Source: Sutcliffiella horikoshii
GTDB taxonomy: Bacteria > Bacillota > Bacilli > Bacillales > Bacillaceae_I
Assembly (NCBI RefSeq): GCF_019931755.1
Contig: NZ_CP082918.1
Coordinates: 3,948,001-4,012,000, forward strand
Direction: 5' to 3'
DNA: 64,000 nt
Part shown: piece after piece, positions 10,622-54,691 of the stretch
How the letters are laid out: the number at the start of each line of letters is the position of its first letter
Numbering within the stretch: position 1 is the stretch's first letter
The notes under the pieces: generated by a model
What the model was told of the DNA's origin: nothing
The model's database searches: none
Seen by the model: only the letters and a program-made list of their open reading frames with translations
Translations under genes and position numbers: made by a program

Positions 10622-12223
10622 TTACTGTCTATCGAATCCTGCTTGTTTAATTTCAAGCCATTCAGATAAACCTAAGCGCTCTAATTCTTCTAGATATTCC
10701 GGCCATTCCGCTTCTATTTGTCCATTGGTAATCCATTCTGCACGCTTTCGGTTTACATATGGAAGCAAGTCCGCTTCGATCTTGGAAAGGCGATCAAGTT
10801 CCTCTTTATCGAAAAATACTCTCGGGTAGATATTTTCTGCTTTCATGTGTGGTACCATGACTTCTTTCATCAAGTTCAATCTCCACGCAGCATCGTCAGG
10901 CTTGGTTGTAACCGTACCATAGTAGCTGTCTAAAATCGCAAGAGGTCCACCGACAGAGGTTTTTTCACGCAATTCAACAGGTGCAGTACCGTCGAGAGGC
11001 AAGTGTCTTAGCATTTCTTCCTCTTCATCCCACTCAAAGATGTTTTGTTGTTCATCATCACCAAATGTGCCCCAGTTGTTTTGTACAGATTGTGCTGGAT
11101 CATAAAGTTCGTCAATCCATTTTGCTGTCAATTCAAGATTTTTATTGGCACTTGTAATAACCATTCTGGAGCGGTCAAAGCCCATTCCATTGGTTCTTGT
11201 GACGTTCTTGTGGCCATCTGGTCCGAATAGAGGAGGCATTAAATCGTATTTGTCGTTCATTCCCGTAATATTTCCTTTATCCCATGTGAAGTACATTCCA
11301 TAGCGTCCTTCTTGTCCTTTGGCCACATATGCAGGCCATTCATGCTCAAATCCCTCAATATCAAGAAGTCCCTCATCATACAAATCGTTCATGAATTTGA
11401 TTGCTTCGATATAACCTTCGTCCGCTGCAGTCAATTTTACTTCTCCATCATTCGTCACTACTGTGCGATCCCAGTTATCGCCGAGGCCAAATGCTCCAAA
11501 TAAGAAGCCTGGATCTTGTCCACCGTCATTGATGATAAATGACATGGGAATTGTTTGACCATCTCCTGCAGGATCGTTATCTCTAAAAGCAATCAATACT
11601 TCTTTCAATTCATCAGTCGTAGTCGGCATTTCCAGCCCTAATTGGTCAAGCCACTCTACATTGATCCAAGGAAAATTATCGACAGAATGAATGCTTTCTT
11701 TCCCTTCTCCTAATTCTTCAATCCAAGGAAAGGCATAAATATTCCCGTCAGGGGCTGTCATCATCGCTTCATATTGGGGAGCTTTCTCCAATACAGCTTT
11801 CAGGTTTGGCATATAATTTTCAATCAAATCGTTAAGTGGAATAATGGCCTCGTCTTCTGCAAGCTTTAACAGTTCATAATCGCTGAATGCAGCATTTTTG
11901 ATTGCATCCGGCATTTCGCCAGTAGCCATCGCAAGGTTTCTTCTTTCTCCAAACACTTCACCTGTGAAGTTTCTCCACTCAATGTGAACGCCTGTTTTCT
12001 CTTCTAATCTTTCATAAATCAATTTTTCGTTCGGATCATTAGGAGCCAGCGGAGAGCTGGAAGTCATAATTTTTAATGAAATATCCTCTTGCTCTAATGG
12101 GAATGTAATATCTTCTAACTCATAATTATCTGACCATGTCTGTTCTGCATTTTTAGAGCAGCCAGCGATCAATAATACACTTGCCAGCAAAGAAGCCATC
12201 AGTACTTTGTACATTTTTTTCAT
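10622..12223 (-). CDS. extracellular sugar-binding lipoprotein of the ABC importer (LplA-like)
   Basis: A 533-residue family 1 solute-binding protein, anchored outside the membrane. It has a lipoprotein signal peptide with lipobox LIAGC (Cys about residue 22), then a long two-lobed domain with motifs such as PNEKLIYERLEEKTGVHIEW near the start and YAFPWIEELGEGK, typical of LplA/YtcQ-type binding proteins working with LplB/LplC permeases. It follows the two permease genes with about 30 bp between them, so it should be co-transcribed. The ligand is inferred as a fructo-oligosaccharide from the GH32 enzyme and fructokinase downstream. Confidence 0.88.
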   Translation of the reverse strand: MKKMYKVLMASLLASVLLIAGCSKNAEQTWSDNYELEDITFPLEQEDISLKIMTSSSPLAPNDPNEKLIYERLEEKTGVHIEWRNFTGEVFGERRNLAMATGEMPDAIKNAAFSDYELLKLAEDEAIIPLNDLIENYMPNLKAVLEKAPQYEAMMTAPDGNIYAFPWIEELGEGKESIHSVDNFPWINVEWLDQLGLEMPTTTDELKEVLIAFRDNDPAGDGQTIPMSFIINDGGQDPGFLFGAFGLGDNWDRTVVTNDGEVKLTAADEGYIEAIKFMNDLYDEGLLDIEGFEHEWPAYVAKGQEGRYGMYFTWDKGNITGMNDKYDLMPPLFGPDGHKNVTRTNGMGFDRSRMVITSANKNLELTAKWIDELYDPAQSVQNNWGTFGDDEQQNIFEWDEEEEMLRHLPLDGTAPVELREKTSVGGPLAILDSYYGTVTTKPDDAAWRLNLMKEVMVPHMKAENIYPRVFFDKEELDRLSKIEADLLPYVNRKRAEWITNGQIEAEWPEYLEELERLGLSEWLEIKQAGFDRQ

Positions 12224-43301: not shown

Positions 43302-44159
43302 TCAATTTTTCCTAGAATAAAATTTAAAGATAGAATACGGGAGTGAATACAAAATTTTCGAATGGATTTCTACCATTTTATCTTTTTTATTTAGAAAATT
43401 AATCCATTTACTTAATAAGGTAGAAACTTTATATGCAAAAATGACTGGCCTCGGTAAAATACTCAACACACTTTTATTCTCTTTTATTTCTTTCCAAGTA
43501 CTTGCTTTATCATTAATTTGTACAAATGCTCTAAACCCCGCGTTTGATCCTCTTATTCTAAACCTTGTGTATATCCCGTTTATATATCCTATTGGATATT
43601 TCTCTGCTATTTGTTTATAAAAGTCTGTATCTTGTCCATATCTTTTCTCAATTGGAAAACGAATATTATCCTTAAACAAAATGTTTCTTTTTACAACCAC
43701 ACATGAAGTCTGCACTTTAAAGGAAATAAAACAATCTTTATAAACATTACCAGAGTAAATACTGGTATCAATTAACTTTGTTTTTTCTTTTCCTTCCCAA
43801 AACATCTCATATGAGTGATGACTCCAATGATAGTTATTTACTTCCATTGCACTTATCTGATCTGTAAGTTTATCCTGTAGCCATATATCATCAGAATCTA
43901 AAAAAGCAATATAGTCACCTGAGGATTTTTCAATACCTATATTTCTTGCAGAAGCTGGTCCACCATTTTGCTTGTAAACAAAATTAACACAACAATTATA
44001 ACTTTTCATTAAATCTGAAATATCTTCATTAGAGCCATCATTAATAACTAGAATTTCTTTATTCTCATAACTTTGGTTCAATACACTATCTATTGCTTCC
44101 TTTAGCCATCTCTGACCTGAATAAAATGGAATTACTACACTTACTAGTGGTTGATTCAT
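43302..44159 (-). CDS. glycosyltransferase family 2
   Basis: A 285-residue GT-A enzyme: LVSVVIPFYSGQRWLKEAID, LVINDGSNEDI, GGPASARNIGIEKSSGDYIAFLDSDDIW with the DSDD metal-binding motif near residue 88. The ATG at 44159 overlaps the capG stop (ATGA) and is preceded by GGAGGAAAG; the in-frame ATG at 44177 lies upstream of that site. Confidence 0.9.
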   Translation of the reverse strand: MNQPLVSVVIPFYSGQRWLKEAIDSVLNQSYENKEILVINDGSNEDISDLMKSYNCCVNFVYKQNGGPASARNIGIEKSSGDYIAFLDSDDIWLQDKLTDQISAMEVNNYHWSHHSYEMFWEGKEKTKLIDTSIYSGNVYKDCFISFKVQTSCVVVKRNILFKDNIRFPIEKRYGQDTDFYKQIAEKYPIGYINGIYTRFRIRGSNAGFRAFVQINDKASTWKEIKENKSVLSILPRPVIFAYKVSTLLSKWINFLNKKDKMVEIHSKILYSLPYSIFKFYSRKN

Positions 44160-45289
44160 TCTTTTTCTTTCCTCCAAACAACTCTATTCACATAGTCCGT
44201 ATAAGATAATATTATTCTAACAACTTTATCAGACACATTAGGCATGCTATAATCCCCAACAAGTCTTAAAGTTCCCGTTTCTTGATTTTCTAAAATCTCT
44301 AAGCCTTGTAGAATTCTTTCTTTAGTAAGACCAATCATCATTACCGAGGCTTCTTCCATCGCTTCTGGTCTCTCATGAGCTTGTCTAATATTCAATGCTC
44401 TAAACCCAAGTATAGAAGATTCTTCACTAATTGTCCCACTATCACTAAGAACCGCTTTCGCTTTAATTTGAAGCTTTACATAATCATTAAACCCTAATGG
44501 TTTCATTGTTTTTACTAATGGATTAAACTTTACTCCTTTAGAATTAATCATATTTCTAGTTCTAGGATGCGTACTCACAATTACAGGCTTTTGATACTTT
44601 TCTGCAATTGCATTCAAGCTTTCTATTAGATCTAAGAAATTGGTTTCTGAATTAATATTTTCTTCTCTGTGTGCTGAAACTACAAAATAATTTCCTTCCT
44701 CAAGCTCTAGTCTCTCAATTACATCCGATTTCTCAATATCATCTTTTCTAGAGTTGAGGACTTCGAACATTGGACTTCCAGTCTTAATAACTCGGTCTGC
44801 AGGGATTCCCTCTCTTAGAAGATACTCCCTTGCTATATCACTATAAGTTAAATTTATGTCAGCAGTATGATCAACAATCTTTCTGTTCGTTTCTTCGGGT
44901 ACTCTTTGATCAAAACATCTATTCCCTGCTTCCATATGAAAAATTGGAATTTGTCTTCTTTTTGCAGCAATTGCACATAAACAACTATTAGTATCACCAA
45001 GGACCAAGACAGCATCTGGATTTACTTCTTCCATAATAGGATCAATCTTAACAAGAATGTTGCCTATAGTTTCTACTGCAGTTCCAGTCGCTGCATTAAG
45101 AAAATAATCCGGCTTTTTTAAATTAAAATCATTAAAGAACACTTCGTTTAGCTCATAATCATAATTTTGTCCTGTATGAACAAGAGTGTGTTCTATTGCC
45201 TTTGATTTTTCTAATTTATTTAAGACAGCCGATAGTCTAATAATCTCTGGTCTAGTACCGACTACAGTCATGACTTTTAATTTCTTCAT
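44156..45289 (-). CDS. capG: UDP-sugar 2-epimerase of UDP-L-FucNAc synthesis (CapG/FnlC type)
   Basis: A 377-residue non-hydrolysing UDP-GlcNAc 2-epimerase-type enzyme: VVGTRPEIIRLSAVLNKLE, HTGQNYDYELNEVFF, DAVLVLGDTNSC, HMEAGNRCFDQRVPEETNRKIVDH and FVVSAHREENINSE. The RCFDQRVPEE variant and position after CapE- and CapF-type genes identify it as the C2 epimerase that completes UDP-N-acetyl-L-fucosamine, rather than the MnaA/ManNAc enzyme. GGAGGT precedes the ATG. Confidence 0.88.
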   Translation of the reverse strand: MKKLKVMTVVGTRPEIIRLSAVLNKLEKSKAIEHTLVHTGQNYDYELNEVFFNDFNLKKPDYFLNAATGTAVETIGNILVKIDPIMEEVNPDAVLVLGDTNSCLCAIAAKRRQIPIFHMEAGNRCFDQRVPEETNRKIVDHTADINLTYSDIAREYLLREGIPADRVIKTGSPMFEVLNSRKDDIEKSDVIERLELEEGNYFVVSAHREENINSETNFLDLIESLNAIAEKYQKPVIVSTHPRTRNMINSKGVKFNPLVKTMKPLGFNDYVKLQIKAKAVLSDSGTISEESSILGFRALNIRQAHERPEAMEEASVMMIGLTKERILQGLEILENQETGTLRLVGDYSMPNVSDKVVRIILSYTDYVNRVVWRKEKE

Positions 45290-45293
45290 TTAA

Positions 45294-46403
45294 TTATACC
45301 TCCATGAAATAGGTGTCTGGTTTCGCTGGATTAAAGTACTCATTCGCCCACATAATTGTAACCATATCAGAATCACCGAGATTCTCAATATTATGTGTGT
45401 AGCCCGTAGGAATATCTACGACTTCCAACTTATCTCCACTAACAAAGTATTCCAGAATTTCATCTTTATCAATTTTTCTAAATCGAATAACTCCATTCCC
45501 ACTTACCACAAGGAACTTCTCATTCTTTGTATGGTGCCAATGATTGCCCTTTGTTATTCCAGGCTTAGATATATTTACTGAAACCTGCCCTCTATCTTGT
45601 GTTTTTATAAATTCAGTGAAAGACCCTCTTTGATCTACATTCATCTTAAGGTCATAACTAAACTTATCTTTTGGCAAGTAGCTTAAGTAAGTACTGTATA
45701 ATTTTTTGGTGAAAGAGTCGGACATATTAGGAATTGAGCGTTCATCACGACTACTTTTGAATGAGTAAATCAAATCAACAATTTCTCCAAGTGTAATCTT
45801 GTGTACGACTGGAACTTTGCAATAATCTCCAATTATATTTGCCTTTCTATTTAGAGCATTTATGAATTCTTCTACTACATTATCAATATATACTAAGTTC
45901 ATTAGAACACTAGGATCGTTAACGTTAATTGGTAGTTCGTGAGCAACATTGTAACAAAATGTAGCTACTGCACTATTATAATTTGGTTTACACCATTTTC
46001 CAAATATATTAGGAAGACGGTAAACAAATACTGTGGACCCTGTTTCTTTCCTATATTCAAAAAGCAAATCTTCGCCAGCTTTTTTACTTTTACCATATGG
46101 ATTACTTAGTTCAGCTTGAATAGAAGAAGAAATTAATATTGGACAAGTATTTTGGTGCTCTTTTAACTTTTTCAGTAGTGTCGAAGTAAACCCATAATTA
46201 CCATCCATAAATTCAGACTGATCCTTAGGACGATTTACTCCAGCAAGATGAAACACAAAATCAGCTTCTTTACAGTATTCATCAAGTAATGAAGGGTCTG
46301 TTTTTCTACTGTATTCAAAAATATATCCATAATTTCGGTTTTTTAGTTCTGCGATTAGGTTTTTCCCCACAAAGCCTTTTGCGCCAGTAACAAGTATTTT
46401 CAT
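45294..46403 (-). CDS. capF: bifunctional epimerase/reductase of UDP-L-FucNAc synthesis (CapF/FnlB type)
   Basis: A 369-residue two-domain enzyme. The N-terminal SDR domain (residues 1-245: ILVTGAKGFVGKNLIAEL, FHLAGVNRP, NPYGKSKKAGEDLL) is followed by a C-terminal cupin domain (about 255-369: RGSFTEFIKTQDRGQVSVN, KPGITKGNHWHHTKNEKFLVV, YTHNIENLG). This fusion is specific to CapF/FnlB, which epimerises at C3 and reduces at C4 the product of CapE. Start and stop codons overlap with capE (TAATG). Confidence 0.92.
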   Translation of the reverse strand: MKILVTGAKGFVGKNLIAELKNRNYGYIFEYSRKTDPSLLDEYCKEADFVFHLAGVNRPKDQSEFMDGNYGFTSTLLKKLKEHQNTCPILISSSIQAELSNPYGKSKKAGEDLLFEYRKETGSTVFVYRLPNIFGKWCKPNYNSAVATFCYNVAHELPINVNDPSVLMNLVYIDNVVEEFINALNRKANIIGDYCKVPVVHKITLGEIVDLIYSFKSSRDERSIPNMSDSFTKKLYSTYLSYLPKDKFSYDLKMNVDQRGSFTEFIKTQDRGQVSVNISKPGITKGNHWHHTKNEKFLVVSGNGVIRFRKIDKDEILEYFVSGDKLEVVDIPTGYTHNIENLGDSDMVTIMWANEYFNPAKPDTYFMEV

Positions 46404-47422
46404 TATTTGTTCCAGCCTTTCAGCTCTTCACGAACATAATCAAGCATTAATAACTTATCTTTAATGGCTTCTATTGATAACCTGTCAGTATTATGTGAAT
46501 TATACTCATCTTCAGAAGATAATTTCTGATCACCTTCTACAAAGTATTTATCATAGTTTAGATCTCGCTTGTCAGCAGGAACACGGTAAAACCCTCCCAT
46601 ATCTTGTGCGACTACATGTTCCTCTCTAGTTAGAAGAGTTTCATATAACTTTTCACCGTGTCGGGTACCTATTACCTTTATTTCATTATCAACATTAAAC
46701 AATTCCGTTAACGCTTTCGCTAACTCGCCAATAGTCGATGCTGGGGATTTCTGGACCATAATATCACCCGCCTCGGCATTTTCAAATGCGAATACTACTA
46801 GTTCTACTGCTTCCTCTAAACTCATTAAGAATCTAGTCATACTTGGATCAGTAACTGTTAATGGTTGTCCGTTTTTTATTTGTTCAATAAATAGAGGGAT
46901 TACGGAACCTCTTGACGCCATTACGTTTCCATATCGAGTTCCACAGATAAGCGTTTTACTCGAATCTACAGTATTTGACTTTGCAACAAATACTTTTTCC
47001 ATCATTGCTTTTGAGATACCCATTGCATTAATAGGATAAGCTGCTTTATCAGTAGACAAACAAATAACTTTTTTTACGTTATTTTCAATAGCAGCAGTTA
47101 GAACATTTTCCGTACCAATCACATTTGTTTTTACAGCTTCTAATGGGAAGAACTCACAGGAAGGTACCTGTTTAAGTGCAGCAGCATGAAAGATGTAATC
47201 AACACCATACATTGCATTTTTTACACTAGCTAAATCACGTACATCCCCTAAATAAAATTTAAGTTTTTCGTTTTTATAAAGCTTTCTCATATCATCTTGC
47301 TTCTTTTCATCTCTTGAGAATATACGAATTTCTCTTATATCCGTATCTAAAAATCTTTTCATAACTGCATTTCCGAATGAACCTGTACCACCTGTTATTA
47401 ATAAAGTTTTATCTTTAAACAT
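46403..47422 (-). CDS. capE: UDP-GlcNAc 4,6-dehydratase/5-epimerase (CapE/FnlA type)
   Basis: A 339-residue SDR enzyme, first step of UDP-L-FucNAc synthesis. Motifs: LLITGGTGSFGNAVMKRFL, FHAAALKQVPSCEFFPLEAVKTNV, CLSTDKAAYPINAMGISKAMMEK (the Met-Lys variant of the SDR YxxxK site), and RHGEKLYETLLTREE. GGAGGG precedes the ATG at 47422; the longer open frame to 47473 overlaps the glycosyltransferase gene. Confidence 0.92.
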   Translation of the reverse strand: MFKDKTLLITGGTGSFGNAVMKRFLDTDIREIRIFSRDEKKQDDMRKLYKNEKLKFYLGDVRDLASVKNAMYGVDYIFHAAALKQVPSCEFFPLEAVKTNVIGTENVLTAAIENNVKKVICLSTDKAAYPINAMGISKAMMEKVFVAKSNTVDSSKTLICGTRYGNVMASRGSVIPLFIEQIKNGQPLTVTDPSMTRFLMSLEEAVELVVFAFENAEAGDIMVQKSPASTIGELAKALTELFNVDNEIKVIGTRHGEKLYETLLTREEHVVAQDMGGFYRVPADKRDLNYDKYFVEGDQKLSSEDEYNSHNTDRLSIEAIKDKLLMLDYVREELKGWNK

Positions 47423-47424
47423 AT

Positions 47425-48660
47425 TTAGCCCTCCAGTATTTCTTTCATCAAATATACATATTGTTGAGTACAATGTTCTTTAGTATACTTTTTAAGGAAA
47501 ACATCCCTACAATTACCGCCCATAATTTTACATTTTTCCTTATCATCACGAAGTTCTTTAATTGAATTTATTAATTTCGGGGTTTCCCCAACTTCCATGG
47601 CATAACCCGCATTATTTTCTGTTAAGTCCTTCGCTATATCAGAATCCTCTCCCATAATGGCTATAACAGGTTTGCTAGCCATCATATAACTATATGTTTT
47701 ACTAGGAACAGCTAAGCCAGTTAACCCTTTTACCAAACTTACTATGAAACAATCACTAATATTAAGTGCATCCTGAAAATCTTGACCATGTAAAAAATCA
47801 AATATACTTACATTATCTAATTTTTCTTTTAGTACTATCCCCTTCAAGATATCCATCTTATTTCCGTGTCCAGCAAATACAAATTGAACCTTCCTATCAT
47901 CTTTGAAGTGGCGAATTGCATTCACTAACGTATCAAGATCCTGACATATACCCATATTCCCAAAATAGGAGACTATGAGGTTGTCATCTTCTTTTATTGA
48001 ACGAAACAACTTGTTTTCTAAAGCATCTTTAGAATCAGAAATCCCTCTATCTTCATACCAATTTGGTATTACTTCAACTTGCTGTTCAGATAACTTTGTT
48101 CTATGTTTAAGTAGATATGCTTTCATCTCATTTGATAAAGCTACTACTTTATTTACATGTTTAAATACACCCATGTTAACTAATTTCATTGTTTTACTTA
48201 TAATGCTATGTTCCCTAATACTATTAGTAATATGAGCCATCTCTGGATATACATCGTAGCTTATGAATACAACCTTAGTATTAAAAAGCTTAGAAGCTAG
48301 AACTGCTATTAGTGGTAATACTGGTGGATTAGAATAAACAACTACTACCCTATACTTTCTTAATTCATTTAGGCGTAATGCAGCTGAGAGAGTGAAAGAA
48401 AAGTAGTTAATCAATCTTCCAACAATATTACTACGTTTTAGTTGAATATATTTTAATCTTTTGATCTCAATGCCTTTATGACTTTCTTTCAACGGGACAT
48501 TATTTTTAAGACTATATTCTTCAGGATAACCCACTAACGCGCCAACAGAAAATCCTGCTTTCTCAAGTGCTTCTGCAGTATCAAAAGGTAGTGTTGCAGA
48601 CGAAACATATTCAGGATAAAAATACTGACATAAAAATAAGACATCTTTCTTTTTATTCAT
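47425..48660 (-). CDS. glycosyltransferase, WbuB-like (GT4)
   Basis: A 411-residue GT-B enzyme: VLFLCQYFYPEYVSSATLPFD at the N-terminus, then VVVVYSNPPVLPLIA and VVFISYDVYPE, the WbuB-type signature. The C-terminal half has IVSYFGNMGICQDLDTLVNAI and VPSKTYSYMMASKPVIAI. WbuB-type transferases add L-FucNAc in O-antigen loci, fitting the following capEFG genes. Confidence 0.85.
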   Translation of the reverse strand: MNKKKDVLFLCQYFYPEYVSSATLPFDTAEALEKAGFSVGALVGYPEEYSLKNNVPLKESHKGIEIKRLKYIQLKRSNIVGRLINYFSFTLSAALRLNELRKYRVVVVYSNPPVLPLIAVLASKLFNTKVVFISYDVYPEMAHITNSIREHSIISKTMKLVNMGVFKHVNKVVALSNEMKAYLLKHRTKLSEQQVEVIPNWYEDRGISDSKDALENKLFRSIKEDDNLIVSYFGNMGICQDLDTLVNAIRHFKDDRKVQFVFAGHGNKMDILKGIVLKEKLDNVSIFDFLHGQDFQDALNISDCFIVSLVKGLTGLAVPSKTYSYMMASKPVIAIMGEDSDIAKDLTENNAGYAMEVGETPKLINSIKELRDDKEKCKIMGGNCRDVFLKKYTKEHCTQQYVYLMKEILEG

Positions 48661-48664
48661 TTTA

Positions 48665-49537
48665 TTACTCCCTACCTTCAGTACTCATAACTGATTCCTT
48701 AAAAGATACAGTCTCATAATCTAATCTCTTATTATTCAGCAAAGTCCCTGGACTACCTGGCAACTCTCTGTCATAAACTAAAGAGCCAAAGACTTTTCTA
48801 AATGTTTCTGACCGTTTAAGGCCTAATATTATAGCCCAATTAATAATGCTCGTTACTCTCAAAGGTTTCCCATGAGCATCTGCAATAGATTTTACTAATT
48901 TAGTGGAACTTATATAATCTTTGTTTTGCGGAAAGAATAATCCATCAACCTCGTATTTGATTAATAACCTAAGGAATTCAGATAAATTATCAATATAGAT
49001 CATGCTTCGCGCATTAACTGTATTAGGAAAGAATGGTGCTTTTAAAGCCAAAGTTGCTAGTCTACTATAGTTACCAGGACAATTCTTGCCATAAACTATT
49101 GGTGGTCTTAGAATGGATATGCGGAAGTTATGATCTCTTAGCTTTTCAAGTAACTGTTCCGCTTCATATTTCGACTTTGCGTAAGGTGTCTTTGGTACAG
49201 GGACTGTAGTATTTTTTATATGTCCTGTTTCCGTACCATAAACCCCCATAGTACTTAAGAAGATGAACTGCTTAACTCCTTCTTTTTTTGCTTTTTCAGC
49301 TAGTTCTATAGTAAGGTCTCTATTAATCTTATAGTATTGATCTGAATTATTTTCTTTCACATGAACAATAGCTGCCGTATGAAATATTACATCATACTCT
49401 TTAAATGTGCCTTCCTTCCATCGATTATCTCTTACACTCAAAGTTTCTACTATGTATTCATTTGGATATTGAGAAACCCAACTTTTAAAGGAGGTACCTA
49501 TATAGCTATTCGCTCCTGTTACTAGAATCTTCTTCAA
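48665..49537 (-). CDS. NAD-dependent epimerase/reductase (WbpV/WreQ-like 4-keto reductase)
   Basis: A 290-residue extended SDR: ILVTGANSYIGTSFKSWV, FHTAAIVHVKENNS, FLSTMGVYGTE, TPYAKSKYEAEQLL (YxxxK intact) and ILRPPIVYGKNCPGNY. Enzymes of this type reduce UDP-4-keto-6-deoxy-GlcNAc, made by WbpM/EpsC-type dehydratases, to UDP-QuiNAc or UDP-D-FucNAc for the initiating transferase. TTG at 49537 preceded by GGAGG gives LKKILVTG as the N-terminus and overlaps the preceding gene by 32 bp; the ATG at 49582 has no site. The substrate is inferred. Confidence 0.8.
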   Translation of the reverse strand: MKKILVTGANSYIGTSFKSWVSQYPNEYIVETLSVRDNRWKEGTFKEYDVIFHTAAIVHVKENNSDQYYKINRDLTIELAEKAKKEGVKQFIFLSTMGVYGTETGHIKNTTVPVPKTPYAKSKYEAEQLLEKLRDHNFRISILRPPIVYGKNCPGNYSRLATLALKAPFFPNTVNARSMIYIDNLSEFLRLLIKYEVDGLFFPQNKDYISSTKLVKSIADAHGKPLRVTSIINWAIILGLKRSETFRKVFGSLVYDRELPGSPGTLLNNKRLDYETVSFKESVMSTEGRE

Positions 49538-50192
49538 TGGAAACAGCCTCCTCTTTTGTAGCTGCCACTTCATTGTATTCATGTTTAATATTGACTAAAC
49601 TCTTGTCAAGGTATCTATCTTCCCCTAGCACAACTACTCCAATTGTTCTCATGATAATCTTTAAATCAAGCCATAAGCTATAGTTTTCTATATAATAAAC
49701 ATCCAGCTTGTACCTATCTTTTAAAGATAAATGAATATTTCCGCTCACTTGTGCTAAACCTGTCATACCAGGTCTCATGTCTAGTCTTTTAGAAATTTCA
49801 TCATCATAATCCACAAGGGAAGCAATTCTCTCAGGCCTTGGACCGACAAGACTCATTTCCCCTTTTAGTACATTTAATATTTGGGGAATTTCATCAAGTT
49901 TAGATCTTCTCAAAAACTTTCCAATATAAGTGATTCTGTCATCATCTTTCTTAACTTCTTGACCCTTAACCATTACATCTGACCCTGGTTTCATTGTTCG
50001 ATATTTATATACTTTAAATATTTGTTTATTGAGTCCTGGTCGATCTTGCAAGAAAAATATGGGTCCTTTTGAAGTTACTTTAACTAAAATCGCAATCGTT
50101 ACCCATATTAGTAGAAAAGGAATTAACACAACCAATGAGATTACAATATCCATCGTTCTCTTTATAGATCTTTGAATCTTTTTCCCTTCCAT
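49506..50192 (-). CDS. initiating sugar-phosphate transferase (EpsL/WcaJ/PglC-like)
   Basis: A 228-residue monotopic phosphoglycosyl transferase. One membrane helix near the N-terminus (MDIVISLVVLIPFLLIWVTI) is followed by the catalytic domain: GPIFFLQDRPGLNKQIFKVYKYRTM, LRRSKLDEIPQILNVLKGEMSLVGPRPE (D-E pair) and RPGMTGLAQVSG. It transfers a sugar-1-phosphate to undecaprenyl phosphate, starting the repeat unit. TAATG overlap with the formyltransferase gene. A Glu-rich tail of about 20 residues is unusual. Confidence 0.92.
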   Translation of the reverse strand: MEGKKIQRSIKRTMDIVISLVVLIPFLLIWVTIAILVKVTSKGPIFFLQDRPGLNKQIFKVYKYRTMKPGSDVMVKGQEVKKDDDRITYIGKFLRRSKLDEIPQILNVLKGEMSLVGPRPERIASLVDYDDEISKRLDMRPGMTGLAQVSGNIHLSLKDRYKLDVYYIENYSLWLDLKIIMRTIGVVVLGEDRYLDKSLVNIKHEYNEVAATKEEAVSIEEDSSNRSE

Positions 50193-51016
50193 TACAATCC
50201 CTCTATCTCATAATCTATTAATTTCAAATAACCGTCGCTAAGTTCTATTTCTCCATCAGTATCGCTTGTTTTACCTGACCAAATTCTAATAGTTTTATCT
50301 CCATCTTTGTAAAATGCACCTGGATACGGGTGTGTAACAGCTCTAATCAATTTATCTGCTTCATCTACAGTCATGTTACTTAGGATTTCGCCATCTTCAG
50401 GCTTTCTTCCAGGCCATTCAGTAGCAACAATATTATTTTGCTTTGTTAGTGTAATGTTATTATTAACAATATCTTCCCAATACTTTGCTATAAGTGTAAT
50501 ATGCATATCGTCAACTTTTTGATAGAGCTCTGTAGCTGTTGTAGTTTGATCCAGTTCTATTACCCCTTGGCCAATAATGTCACCAGTATCAACACCTTGA
50601 TCTAACTTAAACATCGTTACACCTGTTTCATCTAAGCCTTTAATAATTGCCCAGGGTATTGCTGCTCGTCCCCTACCAGTAGGTAATAATGTAGGGTGCA
50701 TACCAATACAGCCATAGGTAGGTGCTTCAAGAACTTCCTTTTTGGCTATTTGTGACCAACCGATAATGAATAGCCAATCTATTTGGTGATCTTTTAATGC
50801 TTGAAGTACATTCTGATCATTAATATTATTGATTTTTAGTAATGGTGCATCATGCTTAGTTGCAACCTCATCCAAATAGATTCTTCCCGACTTATTCCTT
50901 GCTTTCTCATCATGAAGAGTGATGAGTAAATCTAAGTTGCCACCTACGCGGTATATTTCTTCAATGCAACTAAGTCCTAACTGGACACATGTCGCAAATG
51001 CTATTTTTTTCTTCAA
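50192..51016 (-). CDS. sugar N-formyltransferase (formyl_trans_N family)
   Basis: A 274-residue enzyme of the methionyl-tRNA/ArnA-type 10-formyl-THF-dependent transferase family. Core motif: GMHPTLLPTGRGRAAIPWAI, then TGVTMFKLDQGVDTGDIIGQ. His107 and Asp143 match the catalytic His/Asp of ArnA with the same 36-residue spacing, but the usual Asn two residues before His is Gly105 here. A C-terminal domain of about 70 residues (AVTHPYPGAFY) resembles the ArnA/Fmt OB-like part. TTG start after GGATGAGG. It follows a PIG-L deacetylase by 17 bp, suggesting deacetylation and N-formylation of one amino sugar. Confidence 0.85.
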   Translation of the reverse strand: MKKKIAFATCVQLGLSCIEEIYRVGGNLDLLITLHDEKARNKSGRIYLDEVATKHDAPLLKINNINDQNVLQALKDHQIDWLFIIGWSQIAKKEVLEAPTYGCIGMHPTLLPTGRGRAAIPWAIIKGLDETGVTMFKLDQGVDTGDIIGQGVIELDQTTTATELYQKVDDMHITLIAKYWEDIVNNNITLTKQNNIVATEWPGRKPEDGEILSNMTVDEADKLIRAVTHPYPGAFYKDGDKTIRIWSGKTSDTDGEIELSDGYLKLIDYEIEGL

Positions 51017-51033
51017 TTTACCTCATCCTTTCA

Positions 51034-51714
51034 TTAGAGTCCTCTTCTTAATACACTTTCAAATGCCTCTGCATATATCATTCCCGCTTGTCCACCTCGG
51101 TATGCAGCTAGTCCTTTTATTGCCTCATTACTTCTTGGATGTGGAAAATCCCTCATCACACCACGGTACTGTGCTAACGCAGCTATTTTCTTATCAACAC
51201 TCTCTTCTCCCACTTCAACAAATGTATTTGGAGAGAATTGATTCATGGATTTGTTTAGCCCCCATTCTGTAGACGAAGGCACTTCCATAAACAATAATTC
51301 TTTTAGTGGCTTAACATCACTTCGGCGCTGGAATAACCTTGCTGCAGCCTGACATGCTAGTGATGTATGTAAGTGATCGTTATTTAAATCTGCAGGATGA
51401 TGCGTGAAAATCACATCTGCATTCGTTTCTATAATTGCTTTTTCAATAAATTGTACAAGCTTTAAATGCGGTACCATATTAAACTCAATATTTGGGAAAT
51501 CTCCATAAATTACTTTATCTACACCGATAATCTCCATAGAACTATCTACATCTGCATACAACTCTTCAGTACTTGGACGGTGGTTTCTCGCATTCACATC
51601 ACCTGAAAGAATACAAACATTCACAGAGTGACCTTCCTGTGCAAGCTTGTACATGGTAGCTCCTGCGCCTAACACTTCATCATCTGGATGTGCAATTACA
51701 ACTAAATATGACAT
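51034..51714 (-). CDS. PIG-L-family N-acetylglucosaminyl deacetylase
   Basis: A 226-residue zinc-dependent deacetylase (BshB/MshB/PIG-L superfamily). AHPDDEVLG (residues 8-16) and HHPADLNNDHLHT (about 107-119) supply the zinc ligands and catalytic Asp. It hydrolyses N-acetyl groups from amino sugars. GAGGT precedes the ATG. It lies between gtaB and the formyltransferase gene rather than in a bacillithiol context, so a glycan sugar is the likely substrate. A free amine made here would be the acceptor for the next enzyme. Confidence 0.9.
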   Translation of the reverse strand: MSYLVVIAHPDDEVLGAGATMYKLAQEGHSVNVCILSGDVNARNHRPSTEELYADVDSSMEIIGVDKVIYGDFPNIEFNMVPHLKLVQFIEKAIIETNADVIFTHHPADLNNDHLHTSLACQAAARLFQRRSDVKPLKELLFMEVPSSTEWGLNKSMNQFSPNTFVEVGEESVDKKIAALAQYRGVMRDFPHPRSNEAIKGLAAYRGGQAGMIYAEAFESVLRRGL

Positions 51715-51800: not shown

Positions 51801-51879
51801 AAAAAAACAGGGCATTTAACCCCACCTCACACCACACCATTGATAACTCCTCGTATCTAAGGTGGGGATTCCCCCCACC
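51801..51879 (-). promoter_or_regulatory. possible attenuator with three mutually pairing segments
   Basis: Read on the minus strand: segment 1 GGTGGGGGG (51879-51871), segment 2 CCCCACCT (51867-51860), segment 3 AGGTGGGG (51827-51820), then GCCCTG and seven T (51807-51801). Segment 2 can pair either with 1 or with 3, and the GGGG of 3 can also meet GCCC before the T-run. This is the logic of an attenuator between gtaB and the deacetylase gene. Structure is seen; function is inferred. Confidence 0.45.
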
Positions 51880-51908
51880 CACAGTGCAACCGAGTGCCTC
51901 CATTGATA

Positions 51909-51929
51909 AAGGTAAGGAGACATTACCTT
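51909..51929 (-). terminator. weak hairpin after gtaB
   Basis: AAGGTAA / TTACCTT 7-bp stem with a 7-nt loop, about 20 bp after the gtaB stop on the minus strand. No strong U-tract, so at most a partial terminator. Confidence 0.4.
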
Positions 51930-51946: not shown

Positions 51947-52840
51947 TTATACACTTGTATTAGCCTTTTCCAACAACTGTTCCATATACATTAGAATTTG
52001 CTCTCGTAAATCCTCTCGCTCCAAAGCAAAATCCAACTGGGCCTTTATGAACCCAAACTTATCACCAACATCATGACGTACTCCACTGAATTCATAAGCA
52101 ACGACCATCTGTTTTTCGTTTAATTCTTTAATTGCATCTGTAAGCTGAATTTCTCCGCCAGCACCAGGTGCTTGTGTTTCCAAAATGTCGAATATCTCAG
52201 GGCGAAGTATGTATCTCCCCATGATGGCATGATTAGATGGTGCATCTTCCATCTTTGGTTTTTCTACTAAGCTATCAATATGGAAGCAATGCTCATCAAT
52301 TTCACCGTTCTTCTTAGAGATAACGCCATACTTGGATACATCCTCTATCGGTACTTGTTGTACACCTAAAACGGAAGAGTTAAAACGGTCGTATACTTCA
52401 ATCAATTGCTTCAAACATGGTTTCTCTGGGGAGTAAACAATATCGTCTCCCAGCAATACCGCAAATGGCTCGTCTCCGATAAAGCGTTTTGCACATCCAA
52501 TTGCATGTCCAAGCCCAAGTGGTTCTTTTTGACGGATGTAATGAATGTTTGCAAGTTTGGAGATTTCTTGGATTTCTTCTAGCTGTTCAAACTTACCTTT
52601 TTTCGCTAATGTCTCTTCTAGCTCATATGACTTATCAAAATGATCTTCAATTGCACGCTTGCCACGTCCGCTTACAATGATGATATCTTCAATTCCTGAA
52701 GCCACCGCTTCTTCAATGATGAATTGGATGGTAGGCTTGTCTACAATTGGAAGCATCTCTTTTGGCTGAGCCTTTGTCGCAGGAAGGAATCTCGTGCCTA
52801 ATCCTGCAGCTGGAATAATTGCTTTTCTTACTTTTTGCAC
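51947..52840 (-). CDS. gtaB: UTP-glucose-1-phosphate uridylyltransferase
   Basis: Makes UDP-glucose, the precursor for Ugd and other donors. The 297 residues match GtaB/YngB-type enzymes: [78 protein letters not shown] and GEIQLTDAI. Start GTG 15 bp after the dehydratase gene. A second housekeeping copy elsewhere is likely but cannot be seen here. Confidence 0.95.
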
Positions 52841-52855
52841 CTCTTCATCCTCCTC

Positions 52856-54691
52856 TTAAACCGAAACTTTTCTTTTATATAAGTGCTTTAAATCATCTTC
52901 TTTGTTATTCGCAACAGAAAGTAGATATTTTCTTAATTCAGGTTCACTCATCGTTTCGAAGTTTGTTAAGAAGTAACTTAATATTTCTTCCTCTTTTAAT
53001 GGTGCTTTCCCAATATGAATCTTAGGGAAGATATCCGCTTTATGGATTTCATTTTCGTTTAGTAGTTCTTCATACATTTTCTCTCCTGGTCTGATACCGG
53101 AGTAGTTAATCCCAATCTCTTCAATCGAATAGCCGGAAAGAGTGATAAGATTTTTTGCCAGATCGACTATTTTGACCGGTTCGCCCATATCTAAGACGAA
53201 TACCTCTCCGCCTCGCGCTAGAGTACCTGCCTGTATTACTAATCTTGAAGCTTCTGGTATAGTCATGAAATAGCGGGTCATATCGGGATGAGTTACCGTT
53301 ACCGGACCTCCAGCTTGAATTTGTTTTTTAAATAGAGGGATTACACTTCCTCTACTCCCAAGTACATTCCCAAAGCGAACGGCTACAAATTTTGTTTTGC
53401 TTTCCTGTGCGAGCAGCTGAACGACCATTTCGGCAAATCGTTTCGTAGATCCCATAATATTAGTAGGGTTCACTGCTTTGTCGGAAGAAACGAGCACAAA
53501 TGTGTTTACTCCGAATGTATCCGCCGCCTCTGCCACATTTTTAGAACCAAAGATGTTGTTCTTAACTGCTTCTTCTGGGTTGCGTTCCATCAATGGCACA
53601 TGCTTATGTGCTGCTGCATGGTAAACTACATCCGGCATATACTTTTCCATAATGTTGAAGATTTTGCTTCTATCTTGTATGTCTGCAATTTCAGTAAAGA
53701 TGTTAATAGTTGTATCGTATTTTGCACGAAGTTCTAACTCAATAGAATAAATGCTGTTCTCACCATGACCGAGCAATATTAGGTTTTCAGGTGTGAAGTT
53801 TGATATCTGACGACAGATTTCTGACCCTATGGATCCCCCTGCTCCTGTTACAAGGACTGTTTTTCCTGTAATGGATTCTGAGATACTTTCCATATCTAAT
53901 TTTACTGGGTCTCTTCCAAGAAGGTCTTCCACTTCCACGTCACGGAATTCATTAACGGATATTTTTCCGGACATGAGATCCTCTAGCATCGGTATGATTT
54001 TTGTTTTGGCATCTGTTTTTACGCATTCTTGATAGATGGTATTGATGTCTTTCTTACCGAGTGACGGGATCGCAATGATAATATTTTCTATTTCTAGCTT
54101 AGATACTATTGTTTCAATATCTTTCACACTACCGAGTACTGGAATCCCCAATACTTGAAGTTTATGTTTCTTTTCATCGTCATCCACAAAAGCAACTGGC
54201 AATAACTCAGCTTCTCTATTTTGCAGCAATTGCCTTGCCACCATGCTACCTGCAGCTCCAGCACCTACAATTAATGTACGTTTCTTATCGGTAGACTTTT
54301 TATAATAGAAGTCGCGATAGACTCTCCAGGAAAATCTGGAACCTCCGATAAAAATCATGTGGAGCATCCATGTGATTATCAACGCTCTTCCATACACATT
54401 GCCAACTACCAACAACTGTACAAACCCAGTTACTGCGACTGAATAAGTAACAGCTTTCAGAATTCCCATTAATTCACCGATGCTAGCGTATTCCCATGCT
54501 TTATGGTAAAGCTTGTATGTATAAGCAAATAAATGATGCCAAATGATTAGTGACAAAGAGCTTAATAGTAATGTTTGGGAACTAAAGATGTTGGTATCCG
54601 GGATCAACATCCAGAAACTCACATAAATAGAAGACAGGACAATTAGGGAATCAACTAAAATTAGGAATGAAAGCCGTTTTTTATACGTCAA
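52856..54691 (-). CDS. membrane UDP-GlcNAc 4,6-dehydratase (EpsC/CapD/WbpM type)
   Basis: A 611-residue protein. Four N-terminal membrane helices (residues 1-125) are followed by a first Rossmann domain (LIVGAGAAGSMVARQLL) and a C-terminal SDR catalytic domain: VLVTGAGGSIGSEICRQI, YHAAAHKHVPLMERNPEEAV, SSDKAVNPTNIMGSTKRFAE (Met-Lys site), and RYFMTIPEA. It forms UDP-4-keto-6-deoxy-GlcNAc for QuiNAc, FucNAc or bacillosamine. Here no aminotransferase follows, but a 4-keto reductase does. TTG start after AAGGAGG. Confidence 0.92.
   Translation of the reverse strand: MTYKKRLSFLILVDSLIVLSSIYVSFWMLIPDTNIFSSQTLLLSSLSLIIWHHLFAYTYKLYHKAWEYASIGELMGILKAVTYSVAVTGFVQLLVVGNVYGRALIITWMLHMIFIGGSRFSWRVYRDFYYKKSTDKKRTLIVGAGAAGSMVARQLLQNREAELLPVAFVDDDEKKHKLQVLGIPVLGSVKDIETIVSKLEIENIIIAIPSLGKKDINTIYQECVKTDAKTKIIPMLEDLMSGKISVNEFRDVEVEDLLGRDPVKLDMESISESITGKTVLVTGAGGSIGSEICRQISNFTPENLILLGHGENSIYSIELELRAKYDTTINIFTEIADIQDRSKIFNIMEKYMPDVVYHAAAHKHVPLMERNPEEAVKNNIFGSKNVAEAADTFGVNTFVLVSSDKAVNPTNIMGSTKRFAEMVVQLLAQESKTKFVAVRFGNVLGSRGSVIPLFKKQIQAGGPVTVTHPDMTRYFMTIPEASRLVIQAGTLARGGEVFVLDMGEPVKIVDLAKNLITLSGYSIEEIGINYSGIRPGEKMYEELLNENEIHKADIFPKIHIGKAPLKEEEILSYFLTNFETMSEPELRKYLLSVANNKEDDLKHLYKRKVSV

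What the first reader, a model, noticed from the sequence alone, without database searches (positions are those of the whole stretch)
50192..51714. Deacetylase-formyltransferase pair: an N-acetyl to N-formyl sugar conversion
A PIG-L deacetylase is followed within 17 bp by a 10-formyl-THF-type formyltransferase and then by the initiating sugar transferase. No aminotransferase that could make a 4-amino sugar (as for Qui4NFo or Ara4NFo) is encoded in the locus. The likely amine source is therefore deacetylation of an N-acetyl group, giving an N-formyl sugar by group exchange, a route different from the well-known sugar N-formylation pathways.
Basis: partly seen in the sequence, partly recalled or inferred. 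Interest (0 to 1): 0.78.

Follow-up and report, generated by a model that had tools for sequence, protein, structure and literature searches.

The report
Acetyl-to-formyl sugar exchange gene pair
A bacterial slime-sugar operon carries a deacetylase and a formyltransferase gene side by side; comparison with relatives suggests the two swap the acetyl group of a building-block sugar for a formyl group, a route to formylated sugars that needs no aminotransferase but still has to be proven in the test tube.

Summary
In detail: PIG-L deacetylase (51034-51714, -), 17 bp gap, ArnA-like formyltransferase (50192-51016, -), 1-bp overlap with a PglC-type initiating sugar transferase, no DegT aminotransferase in the window. 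The pair is a tightly linked cassette. In 397 genomes of the order the two close subtypes occur in exactly the same 8 genomes, always adjacent. In 24 related loci PIG-L directly precedes the formyltransferase in 24, the transferase follows in 21, an SDR reductase next in 20; FnlABC are in only 5. Five of 10 other genomes with the module have no full-length DegT aminotransferase; the window's own genome has one, in a second EPS locus 284 kb away. This supports N-acetyl to N-formyl exchange, most likely at C2 of the initiating 6-deoxy-HexNAc (QuiN or FucN). Distant versions sit in bacillosamine-type and legionaminic-type clusters, in three alphaproteobacteria and one archaeon. Unexpected: the catalytic Asn of the NxH motif is Gly in 240 of 240 listed homologs, so formyl transfer is inferred. 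No paper on such a pair was found. Chemistry is untested.

The parts
52856..54691 (-). EpsC/CapD/PglF-type UDP-GlcNAc 4,6-dehydratase (611 aa), presumed first step of the initiating sugar
   Evidence: Pfam Polysacc_synt_2 413.6 bits; closest solved chains are named WlaL (5bjw, E 1.7e-86)
51947..52840 (-). GalU-type NDP-sugar pyrophosphorylase
   Evidence: Pfam NTP_transferase 119.7 bits; the name GalU is by sequence look, not tested
51809..51928 (-). EAR element (epsC RNA, RF01735), directly upstream of the PIG-L gene
   Evidence: Rfam 109.8 bits against gathering 42, full length
51034..51714 (-). PIG-L family deacetylase (226 aa), AHPDDE and HHPADLNNDH metal-site motifs present
   Evidence: Pfam PIG-L 71 bits; HPDDE in 120 of the 120 listed homologs, second motif in 119 of 120 by a relaxed pattern
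50192..51016 (-). ArnA-like formyltransferase (274 aa) with G105-M-H107 in place of the NxH motif, D143 kept
49506..50192 (-). PglC-type initiating sugar-1-phosphate transferase
   Evidence: Pfam Bac_transf 213.9 bits; PDB 8e37 diacetylbacillosaminyl-1-phosphate transferase E 2e-40
48665..49582 (-). [quoted passage not shown]
   Evidence: Pfam Epimerase 81.5 bits; next to the transferase in 20 of 24 related loci; substrate inferred
47425..48660 (-). glycosyltransferase, WcaI-like
   Evidence: Pfam Glycos_transf_1 38.6 bits; NCBIfam WcaI family 112 bits, below its cut-off of 276
44156..47473 (-). FnlA, FnlB, FnlC-type genes for UDP-L-FucNAc, a second amino sugar of the unit
   Evidence: NCBIfam FnlA 574 bits (cut-off 730), WbcJ-type reductase 436.4 (cut-off 500), wecB 241.8 (cut-off 210.15); all three found in only 5 of 24 related loci

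Best explanation
The two genes form a cassette that swaps the N-acetyl group of an amino sugar for N-formyl before polymer assembly. In this clade the likely substrate is the C2 N-acetyl of the initiating sugar: EpsC-type dehydratase plus the SDR reductase turn UDP-GlcNAc into a UDP-6-deoxy-HexNAc (D-QuiNAc or D-FucNAc); the PIG-L enzyme removes the acetyl group; the formyltransferase formylates the free amine from 10-formyl-THF; the PglC-type transferase moves the sugar phosphate to undecaprenyl phosphate. Shown: gene content, order, co-inheritance, PIG-L metal motif, ArnA-like predicted fold of the formyltransferase. Inferred: substrate, order of steps (UDP-sugar or lipid-linked sugar), formyl as the group transferred, identity of the sugar.
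For: Same 8 of 397 genomes for both close subtypes, with a wide gap to the next matches (FT 76% then 39%; PIG-L 83% then 44%), always adjacent. PIG-L directly before FT in 24 of 24 loci, transferase directly after in 21, SDR next in 20, EpsC-type dehydratase upstream in 17, FnlABC in only 5 of 24, other glycosyltransferases varying. Five of 10 other module genomes lack a full-length DegT aminotransferase. Over 398 genomes of the phylum, 13 of 14 GxH formyltransferases but 0 of 16 NxH ones have a PIG-L ORF in the same short locus. The link survives a flip in gene order; FT and PIG-L identities correlate, r 0.97 over 25 pairs. Closest solved sequences and folds are the ArnA formyltransferase domain, a UDP-sugar enzyme. 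In a genome of the same genus a locus with the same flanking genes holds another initiating module, aminotransferase-PGT-FT-PIG-L-acetyltransferase, and still has both genes (L122). A C2 N-formyl sugar is on record in a bacterial polysaccharide, GalNFoA beside QuiNAc in P. aeruginosa O6 (table row in PMC11706664, passage).
Against: The catalytic Asn of known formyltransferases is Gly here, so activity, donor and group are not certain. No formylated polymer from any carrier of this subtype is known to me. In 3 of 24 loci the pair stands without the transferase directly behind it (L012, L013, L016). In many of the distant clusters and in the three alphaproteobacterial ones an aminotransferase is also present, so there the formyl acceptor could be its amine. 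The own genome holds a DegT aminotransferase 284 kb away. PIG-L relatives at 36-44% identity occur in 19 further genomes of the order, none of which has a formyltransferase match at E 1e-36, so PIG-L as such does not imply the partner. The SDR substrate rests on context only; PMC4514872 (passages) reports that the B. cereus reductase Preq is not clearly related to gram-negative ones.
Confidence: 0.58

Rival explanations
1. The formyltransferase works on a 3- or 4-amino sugar made by an aminotransferase encoded elsewhere, and the PIG-L enzyme does an unrelated deacetylation.
For: Own genome has one strong DegT match. All 14 genomes with distant GxH versions that were searched (14 of 16; G229 and G365 left out) have at least one, in several within the same cluster. 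Solved sugar formyltransferases of this fold have titles naming 3- or 4-amino sugars.
Against: Five of 10 other module genomes have no full-length DegT enzyme; one of the five is only 91% complete. The own DegT gene sits in another EPS operon with its own dehydratase, GalU, transferase and NeuD-type acetyltransferase. Co-inheritance of PIG-L and FT would be unexplained.
Confidence: 0.15
2. The exchange takes place on another residue of the unit, such as L-FucNAc made by FnlABC or a plain GlcNAc, not on the initiating sugar.
For: FnlABC-type genes are in the window operon, and L013 keeps the pair with FnlABC but without the transferase directly behind it. In P. aeruginosa O6 the N-formyl residue is GalNFoA, not the QuiNAc (PMC11706664, passage).
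Against: FnlABC occur in only 5 of 24 loci, whereas transferase plus SDR occur in 20.
Confidence: 0.17
3. The Gly-type protein is no formyltransferase: it transfers another one-carbon or acyl group to the deacetylated amine, or has lost catalysis.
For: Gly replaces the NxH Asn in 240 of 240 listed homologs (120 of each of two searches) and 49 of 49 aligned ones; Asn is present in 11 of 11 solved chains whose alignment was printed. Gly86 and Ser88 are invariant but differ in the aligned ArnA and Fmt chains.
Against: His107 and Asp143 are invariant (49 of 49); predicted fold and the C-terminal RA..PxPGAF stretch are shared with ArnA. A dead enzyme would not keep this conservation.
Confidence: 0.15

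Closest known systems
ArnA N-terminal formyltransferase domain (UDP-L-Ara4N formylation)
   Different: About 23-24% identity; Asn of NxH is Gly; no fused decarboxylase domain; the amine would come from deacetylation rather than from the aminotransferase ArnB (recalled).
Sugar 3-N and 4-N formyltransferases WlaRD, QdtF, FdtF, VioF, WbkC, Rv3404c
   Different: Entry titles name dTDP- or GDP-linked 3- or 4-amino sugars; their aminotransferase routes are recalled; here no aminotransferase in the module.
Deacetylase-acyltransferase exchange: NodB/NodA of Nod factors; teicoplanin N-acyl glucosamine; mycothiol and bacillithiol PIG-L enzymes (all recalled)
   Same: Same logic: remove acetyl from a GlcNAc-type nitrogen, then put another group on it.
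   Different: Those use a fatty acyl or cysteinyl group and other transferases. BshB1 scores only 42.5 against cut-off 182.5.
UDP-D-QuiNAc pathway of Bacillus cereus (Pdeg, Preq)
   Same: 4,6-dehydratase plus C4-reductase making a 6-deoxy-HexNAc in a Bacillus (PMC4514872, passages).
   Different: The paper's main text has no 'formyl' or 'deacetylase'; similarity of Preq to the window SDR was not tested.
2-formamido-galacturonic acid (GalNFoA) of Pseudomonas aeruginosa O6
   Same: A C2 N-formyl sugar in a repeat unit that also holds QuiNAc (table row in PMC11706664, passage), so the predicted kind of product exists.
   Different: Different sugar, and there QuiNAc is N-acetylated; its biosynthetic genes were not compared here (a review asked for was not held).

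Membership tests
Folate-dependent formyltransferases (PF00551) | Pfam domain over curated cut-off and formyltransferase fold | tested here: met
Folate-dependent formyltransferases (PF00551) | catalytic Asn-His-Asp triad (NxH plus Asp; triad recalled) | tested here: not met
   His107 and Asp143 invariant but Gly105 in 49 of 49 where Asn is expected
ArnA / PRK06988 / Fmt equivalogs | score over NCBIfam cut-off | tested here: not met
   PRK06988 159.3 of 316, ArnA 145.7 of 777, Fmt 100 of 201.5
Sugar N-formyltransferase (function) | formylates an amino sugar with 10-formyl-THF | not testable with these tools
   needs an enzyme assay
PIG-L / LmbE deacetylases (PF02585) | domain over cut-off and metal-site motif | tested here: met
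   71 bits against 28.2; HPDDE in 120 of 120 listed homologs
Bacillithiol deacetylase BshB1 | score over NCBIfam cut-off | tested here: not met
   42.5 bits against 182.5; three other PIG-L genes lie elsewhere in the genome
Aminotransferase-dependent N-formyl sugar pathway | a DegT-type sugar aminotransferase in the locus | tested here: not met
   none in the window; in 1 of 24 related loci within the stretch read (L106)

The most novel reading that the evidence does not exclude
A portable two-gene N-acyl exchange cassette, with a formyltransferase subfamily that has given up the catalytic Asn, reworks the GlcNAc-derived C2 nitrogen in at least three sugar families (6-deoxy-HexNAc, bacillosamine-type, legionaminic-type) in Bacillota, alphaproteobacteria and a haloarchaeon, yielding 2-N-formyl (or, in nonulosonic acids, 5-N-formyl) sugars without an aminotransferase step for that nitrogen.
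Probability: 0.4. Interest if true: 0.75.

Novelty: new variant of a known kind. Interest (0 to 1): 0.62.

Why it matters
If true, N-formyl sugars can be made by editing an existing N-acetyl group rather than by building a new amine. That would let annotators predict formylated polysaccharides in many environmental Bacillota whose enzyme is now often named 'methionyl-tRNA formyltransferase', and it would pose a clean enzymology question: how a folate formyltransferase works without its conserved Asn.

Tried and rejected
Housekeeping Fmt or PurN: rejected, both kinds lie elsewhere in the genome and keep NxH. Bacillithiol deacetylase: rejected. Chance neighbours: rejected. L-FucNAc as the general substrate: disfavoured (FnlABC in 5 of 24 loci). 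A strict tie of GxH to a directly adjacent PIG-L was weakened: in L024 a transferase gene lies between them, in the archaeon neuB does, and in Palleronia and S. meliloti the PIG-L gene is in the same polysaccharide cluster but about 12-14 kb from the formyltransferase. PIG-L was looked for by BLAST against the window protein (E 1e-6), so very distant ones would be missed, also beside NxH enzymes. The PIG-L structure model was poor (pLDDT 66.9, alignment too uniform) and was not used for a fold search. Docking was not possible. The SDR could not be tied to a defined reductase family by NCBIfam or PDB sequence search. The mirror correlation took 27 chosen loci plus the window and lost L122, L123 and L124, whose PIG-L proteins read HADDE or HNDDE and escaped my HPDDE filter; it includes close relatives, so r overstates independence. 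Literature: all 10 searches used; four combinations of formyltransferase or N-formyl with deacetylase or PIG-L gave nothing relevant, (GalNFoA with formyltransferase) gave six papers judged unrelated from the listing, (WlaRD) gave none, and names for C2 N-formyl sugars gave three papers, one of which lists the P. aeruginosa O6 unit. Most subscription papers are not in the library.

Full report
What is there. On the minus strand of the window an EPS-type operon runs Wzz, BY-kinase, EpsC/CapD-type dehydratase, GalU, an EAR RNA, PIG-L deacetylase, formyltransferase, PglC-type initiating transferase, SDR reductase, glycosyltransferase, FnlABC, two glycosyltransferases, a protein without Pfam family that I take for Wzy from its position and hydrophobic look, and another glycosyltransferase. 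The PIG-L and formyltransferase genes are 17 bp apart, and the formyltransferase stop shares a base with the transferase start.

Is it more than chance? In 397 genomes of the order, formyltransferase matches at 76-100% identity occur in 8 genomes and the PIG-L at 83-100% in the same 8, next to each other; the next matches are at 39% and 44%. The hypergeometric probability of identical sets is 7e-17, though the identity cuts were set after seeing the gap and genomes are related. As a contrast, 19 further genomes have a PIG-L at 36-44% and none of them has a formyltransferase match at E 1e-36. The genome-contig scan gave 16 loci; 14 were used, leaving out L018 (same genome as L102) and L019 (fragment). 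With 10 further genomes this makes 24 loci of the close clade, the window not counted. PIG-L lies directly before the formyltransferase in 24 of 24, the transferase directly after it in 21 (not L012, L013, L016), the SDR next in 20 (also not L111), a dehydratase upstream in 17, all of FnlABC in 5, an aminotransferase in 1 (L106, downstream part). Stretches are 9.7-19.9 kb, some cut by contig ends.

Amine source. Of 10 other close-clade genomes searched with PF01041, 5 have no match at E 1e-40 or better; their best matches at a loose threshold are partial (best E 1.4e-13). All 14 genomes with distant versions that were searched (of 16; G229 and G365 were not) have at least one. The window's own genome has one, 284 kb from the pair, in a second EPS locus (L116) with its own EAR, dehydratase, GalU, PglC-type transferase and, next to it, a NeuD-type acetyltransferase; I read that as the N,N'-diacetylbacillosamine set. 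So the own genome alone would not exclude an imported amine; the five genomes without the enzyme make it unlikely as a general rule. The 91% complete genome G161, whose locus L111 also lacks the SDR, is the weakest of the five.

Distant versions. Over 398 genomes of the phylum there are 30 formyltransferase matches at E 1e-30: 14 carry GxH and 16 NxH. A PIG-L ORF lies in the same 2.4-3.8 kb locus for 13 of 14 GxH (directly adjacent in 12, with the transferase gene between in L024; the remaining one, L025, ends with its contig) and for 0 of 16 NxH. In the order survey all 15 matches are GxH and all 15 have PIG-L as neighbour. Two further contexts appear: aminotransferase, transferase, formyltransferase, PIG-L, NeuD-type acetyltransferase in this order (L122, L124; bacillosamine type, the aminotransferase of L122 scoring 385.6 against the LegC cut-off of 420), and NeuC, formyltransferase, PIG-L in a row with NeuB and a NeuD-type gene (6 of 6: L115, L117, L118, L121, L125, L126; legionaminic type). 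The names rest on NCBIfam for L115 (LegC, NeuC, NeuB, NeuD over cut-off) and on BLAST to L115 for the others. On plasmids 186 records match the formyltransferase at E 1e-20, 73 of them Sinorhizobium and 61 Pantoea; the Pantoea rows shown are annotated arnA. I opened four chosen records. Labrenzia has transferase, formyltransferase, PIG-L in a row; the archaeon Halorussus has NeuC, PIG-L, NeuB and, on the other strand, the formyltransferase; Palleronia and Sinorhizobium meliloti have PIG-L beside a sugar transferase 12-14 kb from the formyltransferase in the same polysaccharide cluster. All four formyltransferases read GxH. In the three alphaproteobacteria a DegT aminotransferase is in the cluster too, which leaves the acceptor open there. 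What the contexts share is a GlcNAc-derived nitrogen at C2; hence my reading that this is the nitrogen edited.

Regulation. An EAR element (RF01735) lies directly upstream of PIG-L in the window, and 16 of 23 loci searched have one, 13 of 19 close-clade loci among them, mostly further upstream in the operon. EAR RNAs promote readthrough of long eps operons (recalled). The cassette thus belongs to a regulated EPS operon.

Literature. Searches combining formyltransferase, PIG-L or deacetylase, and N-formyl or polysaccharide gave no paper on such a pair; the one hit (PMC6957218, listing only) is a Rossmann-fold survey. PMC11431627 (passages) describes a haloarchaeal plasmid sugar formyltransferase without any deacetylase. 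PMC4514872 (passages) gives the UDP-QuiNAc route in B. cereus. PMC11706664 (one passage) lists the P. aeruginosa O6 unit with GalNFoA and QuiNAc. Most subscription papers are not held, so absence in print is weakly tested.

Verdict. The logic of deacetylation followed by new acylation is known; its use for formyl groups with this enzyme subtype appears to be a new variant.

Noticed in passing
window 51809-51928 (-): Full-length EAR (epsC) RNA element, 109.8 bits, between GalU and PIG-L; the only Rfam match in the window at gathering score.
   Followed up: partly
L116 (G000:C1:3704000-3723900): A second EPS locus in the same genome with EAR, EpsC-type dehydratase, GalU, PglC-type transferase, NeuD-type acetyltransferase and DegT aminotransferase, with no formyltransferase-PIG-L pair in the stretch read.
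   Followed up: partly
L122 (same genus) against the window: Same flanking genes (Wzz 77%, BY-kinase 84%, dehydratase 84%, GalU 89%) but the initiating-sugar module is swapped for aminotransferase-PGT-FT-PIG-L-acetyltransferase.
   Followed up: partly
L111, ORF starting at 11037 (486 aa): Close-clade locus in which the gene after the transferase is a 486-aa protein with a radical-SAM-like cysteine stretch instead of the SDR (reading of the sequence, no family search).
   Followed up: no
L128 9066-9788 (-): The archaeal cluster has a second, NxH-type formyltransferase beside the GxH one, so two different N-formylations may occur in one sugar pathway.
   Followed up: no
public names of the homologs: Many members of this subtype are named methionyl-tRNA formyltransferase, very probably a misannotation.
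   Followed up: no
window 49500-49590 (-): The SDR ORF as listed overlaps the transferase by 77 bases; the true start is probably the TTG near 49537.
   Followed up: partly
L008 3864-3978 and 6982-7094: Two EAR elements in one operon, one before the dehydratase and one before PIG-L.
   Followed up: no
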